Shown: positions 1 through 64,000 of the stretch, piece by piece
Layout of the letters: every line of letters starts with the position of its first letter
How positions within the stretch are numbered: position 1 is the first letter of the stretch
Assembly (NCBI RefSeq): GCF_013694365.1
Contig: NZ_CP059275.1
Coordinates: 372,001 to 436,000, forward strand
Length of the DNA stretch: 64,000 nucleotides
Direction of reading: 5' to 3'
DNA from: Limosilactobacillus reuteri
GTDB taxonomy: Bacteria > Bacillota > Bacilli > Lactobacillales > Lactobacillaceae
Made by a program: the position numbers and the translations under genes
Notes under the pieces: generated by a model
What the model was told of the DNA's origin: nothing
Databases searched by the model: none
What the model saw: the letters and a program-made list of their open reading frames with translations, nothing else

Positions 1-271
1 CTATGCTTTACAGCGCCGGAAAACTCGTTTCATGATTCATGATTATAAGCAGTTTAAGGATGTGACTTTGACGAAGGCGCGGAGCCAGTTAGCGATTAAA
101 TTACGGCAATTATCATTCTATCTGCAAATATTCCAGCCAAATGAGTTAGCAAAAGTACAGTGTGAACAAGCGCAACAAATATTGATCGCTCATAAGATGA
201 GTAGTCCTAAATCACATTTCTTTGGAATAAAAGAGGCACAAATTTTACTAAAAAGTAAATATACAATATAA
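1..271 (+). CDS. 3' end of an unidentified gene (open at window start)
   Basis: The frame is open from base 2 to the TAA at 269-271, so the gene begins before the window; the ATG at 32 is probably internal. The visible 89 residues are basic and mostly helical, with no signal peptide, membrane segment or motif I recognise. The next unit begins on the base after the stop, so context says nothing about function. I do not assign a role. Confidence 0.5.
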   Translation, partial: YALQRRKTRFMIHDYKQFKDVTLTKARSQLAIKLRQLSFYLQIFQPNELAKVQCEQAQQILIAHKMSSPKSHFFGIKEAQILLKSKYTI

Positions 272-802
272 TTGGATTTAGACATACAGCCCGTGAGGTT
301 GAGTTTAAAAGAATATAAACAAGTTAAACAATTATATATGCGCGCATTTCCGAAATATGAGCGAGAACCGTGGACGTGGCTGCTCATCAAGAGTAAGTAT
401 CAACGCGCTGACTTTATGGCCTTTTATGACCAGGAACAGTTTGTTGGATTTGCTTACGTTATTCACAGTCACGGTATGCATTATATTTTGTATCTCGCAG
501 TTAATGATCAAATCCGTTCTCAAGGATACGGGACACGGATTATTAATGAACTTCGTCGCCTTTACCCTGAGGATTCGCTGGCTCTGGACGTTGAGCAGCC
601 TAATCCTCAAGCGGCAAATAACCAACAGCGGTTACGACGACTTAAATTTTATCGGCGCAATGGCTTTTTCCCAACTCCAAAGCTTTTCAAAGAGGAAAAA
701 GTCACTTTTCAAGTTTTAGCAACCAATAAAAAAATCAACCAACGAAAGATTGATAAGGCCTTTGAGTGGTTCTCATGGCCGCTTGGTTGGCTGATTCAAT
801 AA
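272..802 (+). CDS. GNAT-family N-acetyltransferase
   Basis: A 176-residue protein starting at TTG. The central part (about residues 45-115) has the GNAT layout: a beta-strand region, then the acetyl-CoA pyrophosphate-binding loop seen as R-S-Q-G-Y-G near residue 88, then a helix. A later F-Y-R-R-N-G-F segment near residue 130 is the usual GNAT motif B. The family moves an acetyl group from acetyl-CoA to an amine on a small molecule or protein; the substrate cannot be read from sequence. The length is normal for a single-domain GNAT. Confidence 0.8.
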   Translation: MDLDIQPVRLSLKEYKQVKQLYMRAFPKYEREPWTWLLIKSKYQRADFMAFYDQEQFVGFAYVIHSHGMHYILYLAVNDQIRSQGYGTRIINELRRLYPEDSLALDVEQPNPQAANNQQRLRRLKFYRRNGFFPTPKLFKEEKVTFQVLATNKKINQRKIDKAFEWFSWPLGWLIQ

Positions 803-1255
803 TTGCCAAAAGTTTATCAGCAACATCCTGAGCTGTTTGGTAATCCACGCTCTTCTGTTTTTCCATTATTAACAAAGATTCTTGATGCTAATGCTAGTCT
901 ATCAATTCAAGTTCATCCCGACGATGCTTACGCCGAAGAACATGAGCACGAACTAGGTAAAACAGAGTGTTGGTATGTCATTCATGCAGAACCTGGAGCT
1001 TATTTAACATACGGCCATACCGCAAAAACGCGCGATGAGCTTATTAAGATGATCGATAATCACCAATGGTCAAAACTTTTTAGTAGAAAGCCAGTAAAAA
1101 CAGGGGACTTTGTCTATGTGCCAAGCGGAACTATCCATGCCTTAAATAAAGGAATTATCGTCTTAGAAACCCAGCAAAGTTCTGATACCACTTATCGGAT
1201 CTATGACTATGACCGTCGAGATAAAAAACAGGTCAGCTACGCCAGCTTCATTTAA
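803..1255 (+). pseudogene. manA: Mannose-6-phosphate isomerase, central fragment
   Basis: This 150-residue piece matches the middle of a class I mannose-6-phosphate isomerase, the zinc enzyme interconverting mannose-6-P and fructose-6-P. Metal-site motifs are visible: Q-V-H-P-D-D near residue 36, the E in G-K-T-E-C-W near 52, and P-S-G-T-I-H near 107. About 50 N-terminal residues expected in the family are absent. Near the end the frame is lost at an A6 run (1223-1228); one frame over, the text reads T-G-Q-L-R-Q-L-H-L, which fits the family. The rest of the gene is the next fragment. Confidence 0.8.
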
Positions 1256-61432: not shown

Positions 61433-63439
61433 ATGGGAAAGATTCATGAATTAGATAATATTTTAGCCAATCAAATTGCTGCCGGTGAAGTAATTGAACG
61501 TCCGGCATCAATTGTAAAAGAATTAGTTGAAAATTCATTGGATGCCCATAGTCACCGTGTAGATATTATTGTTGAAAATTCAGGTTTAGACAGTGTGCGC
61601 GTGATTGATGATGGTGACGGAATCGCTGCTGAAGATATTAGACTAGCATTTCACCGTCATGCAACCAGTAAGATTAATTCTCGCCATGACCTCTTTAAGG
61701 TGCAGACGATGGGATTTCGTGGTGAAGCGTTACCTAGTATTGCTTCAGTCGCTGATGTAACGCTTACGACTGCGCAAGCTGGTCAAGAAGAAGGAACAAT
61801 GATTCATTTGCGAGGAGGAAAAGAATTAGTAGTGAAGCCGGCTGGTGCGCGTCAAGGAACCGATATTAAGGTAACCGACTTATTCTTTAATACTCCTGCG
61901 CGATTAAAGTACTTAAAATCACCTCAAACGGAGCTAACCAGAATTACGGACATCATTAACCGACTTGCCCTTGCAAATCCAGCGGTTGCTTTTAGCTTTA
62001 CCCATAATGGGCGGGAATTATTTCGGTCGGCAGGTAATAATAATTTACAACAAGTAGTTGCCGCAATTTATGGCGTTCAAGCAGGACGTAAGATGCTTGA
62101 GATAAGTGGTGCAGATGATGATTTTAAGGTTAGTGGTTTTGTTTCCTTACCAGAATTAACACGTGCATCACGTCAATATATAACAATCACAATCAACCAT
62201 CGGTATATTCGTAATTTTGAATTAACAAAGGCAATTACTCAGGGATATGAATCAAAACTAATGGTTGGTCGTTATCCGATCGCGGTAATTAACATTGATC
62301 TGGACCCTGTTTTAGTTGATGTGAATGTCCATCCAGCTAAACGCGAGGTTCGTTTGAGCAAAGAACAGCAATTAATAAAATTGATTGCTGAAACGATTCG
62401 GCAGCGGATAGCAGTTGAGAACTTGATTCCGGATGTCGATGCTGACCAATTTATTCCTAATGATGATGAGGTAGCGGACCTTGATCGCCGGTTAAAGGAA
62501 GCATCACCTGTTTATCACGCCGCACCGATTTCGGCAGTGCCGGCAACAGAAAAGGCAGCAACTGAGATTTCAACTCCAGCAGCTGATAATCCAGCACATG
62601 CTGACGCGCTTGATAGTGAGATTCCAGCACCGATCGTTATCCACCATCTTGAAGATTTAAATACGCCCGCAATGCAAAAATTTGATGAGCGTTATCAAAA
62701 TGAAGGTGAAGTTACGCCATTTTCTGCTCCAGTTCCCACTATGACTAAGAAGCCAGTAAAACCTGCAAATATTGAATTGGATGTTCATGATAAACAAGAT
62801 CAGCAGCAAAATCGGTTTCCTGATCTTCAATATATTGGTCAACTTCAGGGAACCTTTTTATTAGCACAAGCAGGAGATGGTCTTTACATTGTTGACCAAC
62901 ATGCTGCTCAGGAGCGAATTAATTATGAGTATTACCGCCAAAAAATTGGGGAAGTGAGCGCTGATCAGCAAAATTTCTTGGTTCCGCTTGTTCTTAATTA
63001 TTCGACTGTCGACGCAATGACAATTAATCAGCATCTCGATACGCTTGCAGCGGTCGGATTAGAATTAGAGTCATTTGGTCAAAATAGTTTTATTTTGCGC
63101 TCCCATCCAACCTGGTTTAAAGAGGGGCAAGAAGAAGACACGGCCAAAGAAATGATTGATTGGTTAATTAAGAATGGAAAGCTAACCGTCAAAGAATTTC
63201 GAATGAAGACAGCGATTATGATGAGCTGCAAGCGGGCTATAAAGGCTAACCACCACCTTGACGAACGGGAAGCTAAAGCCTTGCTGAAACGGTTGCCGCA
63301 ATGTGAGAATCCTTTTAATTGTCCACATGGGCGTCCGGTAACTGTTCATTTTAATGATCAGGATTTAGAAAAAATGTTTAAACGAATTCAGGATTCACAC
63401 ACCCCATATGCAGACGATTTTGATGATCATGAATTTTAA
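61433..63439 (+). CDS. mutL: DNA mismatch repair protein MutL
   Basis: A 668-residue MutL. The GHKL ATPase domain has E-L-V-E-N-S-L-D-A near residue 30 (Glu33 and Asn34), D-D-G-D-G and G-F-R-G-E-A-L. A linker of about 100 residues (about 340-450) leads to the C-terminal dimerisation domain, where D-Q-H-A-A-Q-E-R and C-P-H-G-R-P contribute to the Zn/Mn nicking site. It follows mutS. Confidence 0.97.
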   Translation: MGKIHELDNILANQIAAGEVIERPASIVKELVENSLDAHSHRVDIIVENSGLDSVRVIDDGDGIAAEDIRLAFHRHATSKINSRHDLFKVQTMGFRGEALPSIASVADVTLTTAQAGQEEGTMIHLRGGKELVVKPAGARQGTDIKVTDLFFNTPARLKYLKSPQTELTRITDIINRLALANPAVAFSFTHNGRELFRSAGNNNLQQVVAAIYGVQAGRKMLEISGADDDFKVSGFVSLPELTRASRQYITITINHRYIRNFELTKAITQGYESKLMVGRYPIAVINIDLDPVLVDVNVHPAKREVRLSKEQQLIKLIAETIRQRIAVENLIPDVDADQFIPNDDEVADLDRRLKEASPVYHAAPISAVPATEKAATEISTPAADNPAHADALDSEIPAPIVIHHLEDLNTPAMQKFDERYQNEGEVTPFSAPVPTMTKKPVKPANIELDVHDKQDQQQNRFPDLQYIGQLQGTFLLAQAGDGLYIVDQHAAQERINYEYYRQKIGEVSADQQNFLVPLVLNYSTVDAMTINQHLDTLAAVGLELESFGQNSFILRSHPTWFKEGQEEDTAKEMIDWLIKNGKLTVKEFRMKTAIMMSCKRAIKANHHLDEREAKALLKRLPQCENPFNCPHGRPVTVHFNDQDLEKMFKRIQDSHTPYADDFDDHEF

Positions 63440-64000
63440 TTGTACGAATACTTAACAGGCCTTGTAACTGTTGTTGCACCACAATATATCGTTGTTGATG
63501 TTAATGGGGTTGGCTATAAATTATTAGTTGCTAATCCCTATCGTTATCAAGAGGATCGGACTAAGAAGGTCCAAGTATATGTTTATCAAGCAGTTCGTGA
63601 AGATAATATTTCCTTGTTTGGCTTCACAGATCAAAATGAAAAAAAACTATTTATGCAATTAATCAATGTTTCTGGAATTGGGCCAAAGAGTGCTTTAGCA
63701 ATTTTAGCGAACCCTGATCATCAGGGACTTGTTGATGCAATTACTAATAATAATGTTAACTATTTAACTAAGTTCCCAGGAATCGGGAAAAAGACAGCTT
63801 CGCAAATTGTGTTAGACTTACGTGATAAGCTCACTAATGAAAGCAGCAGCTCATTATTTGCAACAACTCAGCTTACCGTTGATGCAACAGTAAATCGTGA
63901 GTTGAAAGATGCTTTGGAAGCATTGGCTGCATTAGGATACAAGGAACGGGATATTAAAAAGGTTCAAAAGACATTAATGAAAGAAGAACAAATGGCAACT
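63440..64000 (+). CDS. ruvA: Holliday junction helicase subunit RuvA (open at window end)
   Basis: From TTG at 63440 the frame runs 187 codons to the last base with no stop; RuvA is normally about 200 residues, so only the end is missing. The OB-fold domain (1-62) is followed by two helix-hairpin-helix motifs: S-G-I-G-P-K-S near residue 77 and P-G-I-G-K-K-T near 112. The protein recognises Holliday junctions and recruits RuvB. Confidence 0.95.
   Translation, partial: MYEYLTGLVTVVAPQYIVVDVNGVGYKLLVANPYRYQEDRTKKVQVYVYQAVREDNISLFGFTDQNEKKLFMQLINVSGIGPKSALAILANPDHQGLVDAITNNNVNYLTKFPGIGKKTASQIVLDLRDKLTNESSSSLFATTQLTVDATVNRELKDALEALAALGYKERDIKKVQKTLMKEEQMAT

What the first reader, a model, noticed from the sequence alone, without database searches (positions are those of the whole stretch)
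1..64000. The window is a gene concatenate, not a contiguous chromosome
More than 65 successive coding units all read on +, and nearly every one begins on the base after the previous stop. Promoters, ribosome-binding spacers, tRNAs and terminators are absent outside three short blocks. Natural genomes, even compact ones, do not look like this: highly expressed genes such as rpsD, efp and recA have no leader at all. Spacing, operon and strand information in this record should therefore not be trusted.
Basis: seen in the sequence. Interest (0 to 1): 0.75.

Follow-up and report, generated by a model that had tools for sequence, protein, structure and literature searches.

The report
Genome record made of pasted features
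This stretch is not real chromosome sequence: someone's annotated genes (and repeats) were cut out of a draft bacterial genome, each turned to read forwards, and glued end to end, so spacing, strand and regulatory DNA in the record are meaningless although the genes themselves are real.

Summary
The window (bases 372001-436000 of a one-contig, 2,085,667-base Limosilactobacillus record) is a computer-made concatenate. From 11936 to 64000, 53 coding units follow each other with no base between, all on +. In three close relatives the mapped genes stand in the same order, but with spacers (medians 84-88 bases), and 9-12 of them on the other strand. Where native genes overlap by 8 bases (two places), the overlap is written twice; deletion in a cell cannot do that. 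RNase P RNA and tmRNA are missing from the record, T-boxes almost so, while rRNA and abutting tRNAs are present. RNase P RNA is in 299 of 300 family genomes tested; the exception is this record. Of 20 further stretches sampled, 19 hold 10-27 such joins and the last 2. The three non-coding blocks are multi-copy repeats in native orientation; two are followed by a gene fragment that is the exact reverse complement of part of the block. This fits a feature export (CDS, RNA, repeats) of a short-read draft, probably SPAdes k=127 plus RAST (inferred). One correction: gene order within a source contig is kept. Artefact; no new biology.

The parts
1..9057 (+). 17 units and one repeat block, from draft contig(s) that end inside an IS200/IS605-type element; gene order as in relatives, genes of both native strands all turned to +
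   Evidence: in G020:C72/C59, G016:C53/C55 and G015:C55 the same genes lie in order, on mixed strands and with spacers; a T-box (G020:C59:34001-34250) that lies between units 7150-7626 and 7627-8313 is missing here
4985..5757 (.). Non-coding block kept in native orientation: repeat with part of an IS200-like transposase on the - strand
   Evidence: 11 further matches of parts of 4985-5703 at 96-100% elsewhere in the record; one 769-base match (98%) in G015:C16; 5133-5357 (-) matches Y1_Tnp (PF01797), E 1.6e-8
9058..9544 (.). Non-coding block in native orientation, end of a draft contig cut inside tnpB (contig end inferred)
   Evidence: multi-copy; 9210-9542 is the exact reverse complement of the next unit
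9545..9877 (+). TnpB fragment CDS without start codon (cut by the contig end), exact reverse complement of 9210-9542
   Evidence: (NF040570 guided_TnpB, model positions 285-389 of 389)
9878..10243 (.). Non-coding block in native orientation, start of the next draft contig inside a mobile element (contig start inferred)
   Evidence: multi-copy; 9879-10154 is the exact reverse complement of 10244-10519
10244..10519 (+). Fragment CDS without stop, probably the start of an IS30-type transposase (name from reading, not tested beyond a weak HTH match), fused in frame to the next unit
   Evidence: only HTH_38 at E 2.4e-4, below its cut-off; one search shows native sequence resuming at the ATG of 10520
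10520..11935 (+). First whole gene of the second draft contig; from here on the order follows G015:C1 (to 50722), G020:C55 and G016:C28 (to 64000)
11936..64000 (+). Unbroken chain of 53 abutting units (among them valS, cydA, rpsD, recA, RNase Y)
16259..20779 (+). Six genes that are on the opposite strand in all three relatives, each flipped on its own while their order is kept
16259..18199 (+). Native 8-base overlap ATGAATAA written twice: at the start of 16259-17101 and at the end of 17102-18199
41259..41274 (+). Native 8-base overlap ATGAATAA written twice in tandem across the join 41266|41267
   Evidence: native DNA has it once in all three relatives
34489..34490 (+). Join from which about 325 native bases with the valS T-box leader are missing
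22955..25666 (+). Broken oxalyl-CoA decarboxylase and formyl-CoA transferase genes, given as seven separate ORF pieces with bases between them dropped
   Evidence: six of the seven pieces match a model; 24245-24460 matches none and is placed by its position in G015 and G016

Best explanation
The record is an end-to-end paste of all annotated features (protein genes, tRNA and rRNA genes, and repeat regions) of a short-read draft assembly of a Limosilactobacillus. Features were taken contig by contig in order of position; stranded features were written in their coding direction, strandless repeat regions as they stood, and everything between features was dropped. Shown: the cutting at feature ends, flipping in place, doubled overlaps, missing RNA genes of the non-annotated kind, doubled repeat pieces, and extent over the sampled parts of the record. 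Inferred: the programs, most likely SPAdes with k=127 (repeat lengths peak at 125-127, tail of tiny pieces) and RAST/RASTtk (tRNA and rRNA present, RNase P RNA and tmRNA absent, repeat regions present).
For: Strict joins 62 in 64 kb against 5 in 378 kb of relatives; missing spacers and 12, 12 and 9 flipped genes of 43, 46 and 49 mapped units; overlaps written twice; ribosome-binding pairing upstream of starts lost: mean duplex energy -2.7 to -3.1 in the window, -8.3 to -9.3 for the same genes in relatives; RNase P RNA absent here, present in 299 of 300 family genomes; 1 weak T-box against 24-32 in seven relatives; tmRNA absent, present above cut-off in 6 of 7 relatives; tRNAs often abutting and 77 of 81 on + (150 of 180 candidates scored), with Val and Glu tRNAs present as a - pair with a 3-base spacer and, 7 bases on, as an abutting + pair; the three window blocks are multi-copy and two hold exact inverted doubles of the next unit; exact repeats peak at 125-127 bases and 81% of the record's last 20 kb is local doublings of small pieces.
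Against: None found against concatenation. Against the named programs: the repeat_region habit of RASTtk and the contig rules of SPAdes are recalled, not tested; the source draft was not found. One T-box-like match remains in the record (E 1.1e-7, below cut-off), and the relative G008 also lacks a tmRNA match above cut-off, so tmRNA absence alone is not diagnostic. Local doublings are rare outside the last stretch: 6 of the other 19 sampled stretches have any. The terminator scan did not discriminate.
Confidence: 0.98

Rival explanations
1. A real, extremely compacted chromosome in which all spacers were lost and all genes came to read one way.
For: The record is listed as one contig with 100% completeness.
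Against: Deletion cannot write a native overlap twice; each minus gene is flipped singly with order kept, at exact ORF ends; no RNase P RNA, and no tmRNA above cut-off; a relative whose units are 92-100% identical has normal spacers.
Confidence: 0.001
2. A paste of protein-coding genes only.
For: Most of the window is coding units end to end.
Against: rRNA and tRNAs are in the record, tRNAs often abutting, and repeat blocks are there in native orientation.
Confidence: 0.01
3. Right kind of artefact, other programs: the features came from Prokka, PGAP or another annotator, or from another k-mer assembler.
For: Program names are inferred only.
Against: As recalled, PGAP lists RNase P RNA, tmRNA and SRP RNA, and Prokka lists tmRNA; tmRNA and RNase P RNA are absent. 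Repeat regions as features fit RASTtk best (recalled).
Confidence: 0.15

Closest known systems
Feature FASTA export of an annotation server (RAST/RASTtk gene and RNA sequences; recalled)
   Same: Each feature in coding direction, sorted by contig and position, spacers lost, overlaps repeated
   Different: Here the separate entries were merged into one sequence and stand as a genome
Pseudomolecule (draft contigs joined into one sequence; recalled)
   Same: Contigs of a draft are put in a row as one record
   Different: A pseudomolecule keeps the spacers inside contigs; here they are gone
L. reuteri PNW1 draft (PMC6386563, whole text read; PMC7371166, passages)
   Same: Same kind of workflow: SPAdes draft annotated with PGAP and RAST, called a complete genome in the title
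   Different: 2,430,215 bases in 420 contigs under a WGS accession; nothing ties it to this record
MAG ERR4304450_bin.64, contig CAMLUN010000001.1, the same as G015:C1 by length (90,429) and place of valS
   Same: Same gene order, units 92-100% identical
   Different: Ordinary spacers and both strands used

Membership tests
Feature concatenate (in-silico artefact) | Joins lie exactly at feature ends | tested here: met
   53 of 53 units in 11936-64000 start with ATG, GTG or TTG on the base after the preceding stop
Feature concatenate (in-silico artefact) | Native spacers missing | tested here: met
   36 of 40, 37 of 40 and 41 of 44 clean joins have extra bases in G015, G020, G016 (2, 4 and 3 joins set aside)
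Feature concatenate (in-silico artefact) | Minus-strand features flipped singly, order kept | tested here: met
   12 of 43, 12 of 46 and 9 of 49 mapped units are minus in G015, G020, G016, in ascending order except 26909-29809 in G020, which lies at a shifted, diverged place
Feature concatenate (in-silico artefact) | Overlaps of neighbouring features written twice | tested here: met
   ATGAATAA twice at two places; once in native DNA of three relatives
Feature concatenate (in-silico artefact) | RNA genes outside the annotator's repertoire are missing | tested here: met
   RNase P RNA: this record is the only one of 300 family genomes without a match; no tmRNA match above cut-off. SRP RNA was not searched
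Feature concatenate (in-silico artefact) | Extends over the whole record | tested here: met
   20 sampled stretches, 400 kb of 2.09 Mb: 19 with 10-27 joins on +, the last with 2 and mostly small doubled pieces
RAST/RASTtk export of a SPAdes k=127 draft | Non-CDS blocks are multi-copy repeats in native orientation | tested here: met
   3 of 3 window blocks; control stretches 1-3000 and 34490-38563 have, apart from one 156-base match at 74%, no second copy. Blocks outside the window were not tested one by one
RAST/RASTtk export of a SPAdes k=127 draft | Contig-end overlaps of 127 bases | tested here: met
   358 pairs of exact repeats of 60 or more bases in 464 kb held; 125, 126 and 127 are the commonest lengths (30, 32, 41); 0 such repeats inside the stretches of G020 and G016. 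That they are contig-end overlaps is inferred
RAST/RASTtk export of a SPAdes k=127 draft | Submitter's files name these programs | not testable with these tools
   Record name not shown; not found in the rows listed
Natural bacterial chromosome | Holds RNase P RNA | tested here: not met
Natural bacterial chromosome | Ribosome-binding sites before starts | tested here: not met
   duplex energy -6 or lower at 11 of 41, 9 of 43 and 12 of 48 starts in the window; at 31, 39 and 42 of the same starts in G015, G020, G016

The most novel reading that the evidence does not exclude
Feature concatenates are a recurring, unrecognised class of public 'complete' genomes: their listed completeness can be 100%, as here, and they can enter species-level reference sets as good single-contig genomes. 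A missing RNase P RNA in an otherwise complete genome would be a one-line screen for them. Here it picked out 1 of 300 family genomes, and that one was this record, which was known beforehand.
Probability: 0.3. Interest if true: 0.4.

Novelty: not a real feature. Interest (0 to 1): 0.15.

Why it matters
Anyone using this record for operons, promoters, strand bias, GC skew, riboswitches, gene overlaps, small RNAs or genome-size and coding-density statistics will get wrong answers, and its listed quality scores (100% complete, 0.96% contamination) do not show it. The genes themselves stay usable. The RNase P RNA test is a cheap way to look for more such records.

Tried and rejected
A run of the unit mapping started in the wrong frame (chain begun at 10519) was discarded and redone from 11936. 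The promoter and terminator scans were weak evidence: terminator-like counts 20 and 23, and the two stretches overlap only in part. Paper searches for a description of this record or of such artefacts: searches returned no paper; some searches returned 28, 31 and 91, of which I saw 10, 10 and 15 listed rows with the start of the abstract, none describing it. L. reuteri PNW1 was considered as the source because its paper names SPAdes and RAST (whole text, passages of the second PNW1 paper) and set aside: 2.43 Mb in 420 contigs, no link shown. A real compact genome was considered and rejected (doubled overlaps, single flips, missing RNase P RNA). A paste of coding genes only was rejected because RNA genes and repeat blocks are present. 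The organism name was not obtained: the named collection may leave out the window's own record, and its best match there is a MAG.
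Full report
What was claimed. Observation and interpretation were tested apart.

Observation. The window is bases 372001-436000, + strand, of a genome held as one contig of 2,085,667 bases, 100% complete and 0.96% contaminated by its listed scores. From 11936 to 64000 a walk from stop to next base gives 53 units, every one beginning with ATG, GTG or TTG and none separated by a single base (ORF list). With the 20 units before 11936 I count 73 in the window. A strict count of stop codons directly followed by a start codon, with at least 60 open codons on either side, gives 62 on + and 0 on -. Three stretches of close relatives, 378 kb in all, give 3 and 2. No tRNA is found in the window. 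The three non-coding blocks are 4985-5757, 9058-9544 and 9878-10243. The named genes rpsD, efp and recA are correctly named.

It is not local. Twenty further 20-kb stretches of the same record (400 kb) hold 363 such joins on + and 2 on -; 19 stretches have 10 to 27 on +, and the last stretch of the record has 2. The tRNA model finds 81 matches in the record (150 of 180 candidates scored), 77 on +, many touching end to end (ARAGORN on fetched pieces).

Comparison with relatives. 37 genomes of the genus, this one included, were searched with valS plus the next unit, a cytochrome bd oxidase subunit I gene. In the record the two genes form one unbroken match; in the three closest relatives (G015, G020, G016) they are 382, 382 and 383 bases apart. 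Unit by unit, 43, 46 and 49 of the 53 units map to G015:C1, G020:C55 and G016:C28, in the same order except for 26909-29809 in G020. Of the joins that could be compared cleanly (40 of 42, 40 of 44, 44 of 47), 36, 37 and 41 have extra bases in the relative (medians over clean joins 84, 88, 88; largest about 470), one is naturally zero, and 3, 2 and 2 are natural overlaps. 12, 12 and 9 units lie on the other strand in the relatives. Because those genes keep ascending order in the window, each was turned singly; an inversion would also have reversed their order. For the first 9 kb, one search shows the same picture: order kept, mixed strands and spacers in the relatives.

The decisive detail. Two neighbouring pairs overlap by 8 bases in all three relatives, sharing ATGAATAA. 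The window has ATGAATAA|ATGAATAA across 41266|41267. For the flipped pair it has ATGAATAA both at the start of 16259-17101 and at the end of 17102-18199. Loss of spacers in a living genome cannot write an overlap twice; cutting out two features and pasting them must. A third place, 25294-25301, with TTGA twice, fits a 4-base overlap in G015 (in G016 the ends of that pair did not align cleanly).

What was thrown away. RNase P RNA, which cells of this family need (recalled), is absent from the record and present in 7 of 7 relatives. In a wider draw of 300 family genomes with completeness of 98% or more, 299 have it and the only one without is this record. T-box leaders: one weak match in the record, below cut-off, against 24-32 matches at E 0.001 or better in seven relatives. 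Three T-boxes that lie in the relative G020 between genes of this window are not found in it, among them the valS leader. tmRNA: none above cut-off here, present in 6 of 7 relatives; the seventh, G008, has none above cut-off either. Three full 16S genes are present, all on +, with partial - copies next to two of them. Pairing of the 20 bases before each start (the two nearest bases left out) with the 16S tail is weak in the window (mean -2.7 to -3.1 kcal/mol) and strong for the same genes in relatives (-8.3 to -9.3). Promoter-like matches are 41 in a 20-kb piece of the window and 67 in a partly overlapping 20-kb piece of G015; terminator-like matches hardly differ (20 and 23), so that scan is not diagnostic.

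What the blocks are. All three non-coding blocks of the window are multi-copy in the record, whereas two control stretches have no second copy apart from one 156-base match at 74%. The first carries part of an IS200-like transposase on the - strand (Y1_Tnp). The other two keep native orientation and are followed by the gene fragment they contain, turned round: 9545-9877 is the exact reverse complement of 9210-9542, and 10244-10519 of 9879-10154. The first fragment is a TnpB end without start codon. The second has no stop; it looks like an IS30-type transposase start by eye, but the family search gives only a weak helix-turn-helix match. Both are what a gene caller gives at contig ends, so a draft-contig junction probably lies between 9544 and 9878. 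Elsewhere the Val and Glu tRNAs stand as a pair on - with a 3-base spacer and, 7 bases further, as an abutting pair on +. Exact repeats in 464 kb of held record peak at 125, 126 and 127 bases (30, 32 and 41 of 358 pairs), as expected of contig ends from a de Bruijn assembler with k=127. The last 20 kb of the record is 81% local doublings of pieces that shrink, roughly, to about 130 bases, as expected if contigs are sorted by length down to k+1 (recalled rule). Of the other 19 sampled stretches 6 hold any local doubling, and the window two; the held stretches of the three relatives hold none.

How it came about. The simplest account is: short reads, assembled by a k=127 assembler, annotated by a server that lists CDS, tRNA, rRNA and repeat regions but not RNase P RNA or tmRNA; all feature sequences were exported in coding direction and merged into one sequence, which was then taken for a genome. 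RAST/RASTtk after SPAdes fits best; that part is recalled knowledge, not tested. The L. reuteri PNW1 paper (PMC6386563) shows that this workflow is in use in the species, but it describes a different record.

What can be trusted. Coding sequences, and gene order within a draft contig. What cannot: strand, spacing, operon direction, upstream regions, overlaps, junctions such as the one between 9544 and 9878, gene fragments doubled at repeats, total size, GC skew.

Kind and novelty. Not a biological feature. The useful by-product is that absence of RNase P RNA in a 'complete' genome flags this kind of record; how many others exist is open. Searches for a published account of this record or of the artefact showed none in the rows listed, in a library that lacks most subscription journals.

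Noticed in passing
22955-25666; G015:C1:58999-62058; G016:C28: Oxalate genes oxc and frc are in seven pieces here. In the near relative G015 oxc is also broken (481-aa and 71-aa ORFs among the pieces) while frc is one 410-aa ORF; in G016 each is one long ORF (577 and 452 aa). Oxalate breakdown may be decaying in this lineage.
   Followed up: partly
G008 (one contig, 1.9 Mb): A complete-looking genus member with RNase P RNA and 32 T-box matches but no tmRNA match above cut-off; loss, divergence or a gene cut by the record's ends.
   Followed up: no
G020:C59:34001-34250; window join 7626|7627: A T-box leader lies upstream of luxS (7150-7626) on its coding strand in the relatives G020 and, below cut-off, G016; it is gone in this record.
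   Followed up: no
G000 and G015: Both are held in the collection, G015 as the genome of a species, although their shared units are 92-100% identical; the concatenation may have kept them from being put together. Not testable here.
   Followed up: no
L032:17886-18183: 24-base tandem period in one of the tiny doubled pieces at the end of the record.
   Followed up: no
26909-29809: Three units match G020 only at 70-83% and at a shifted place, and G016:C28 not at all, while G015 matches at 98-99%: a replaced segment between relatives.
   Followed up: no
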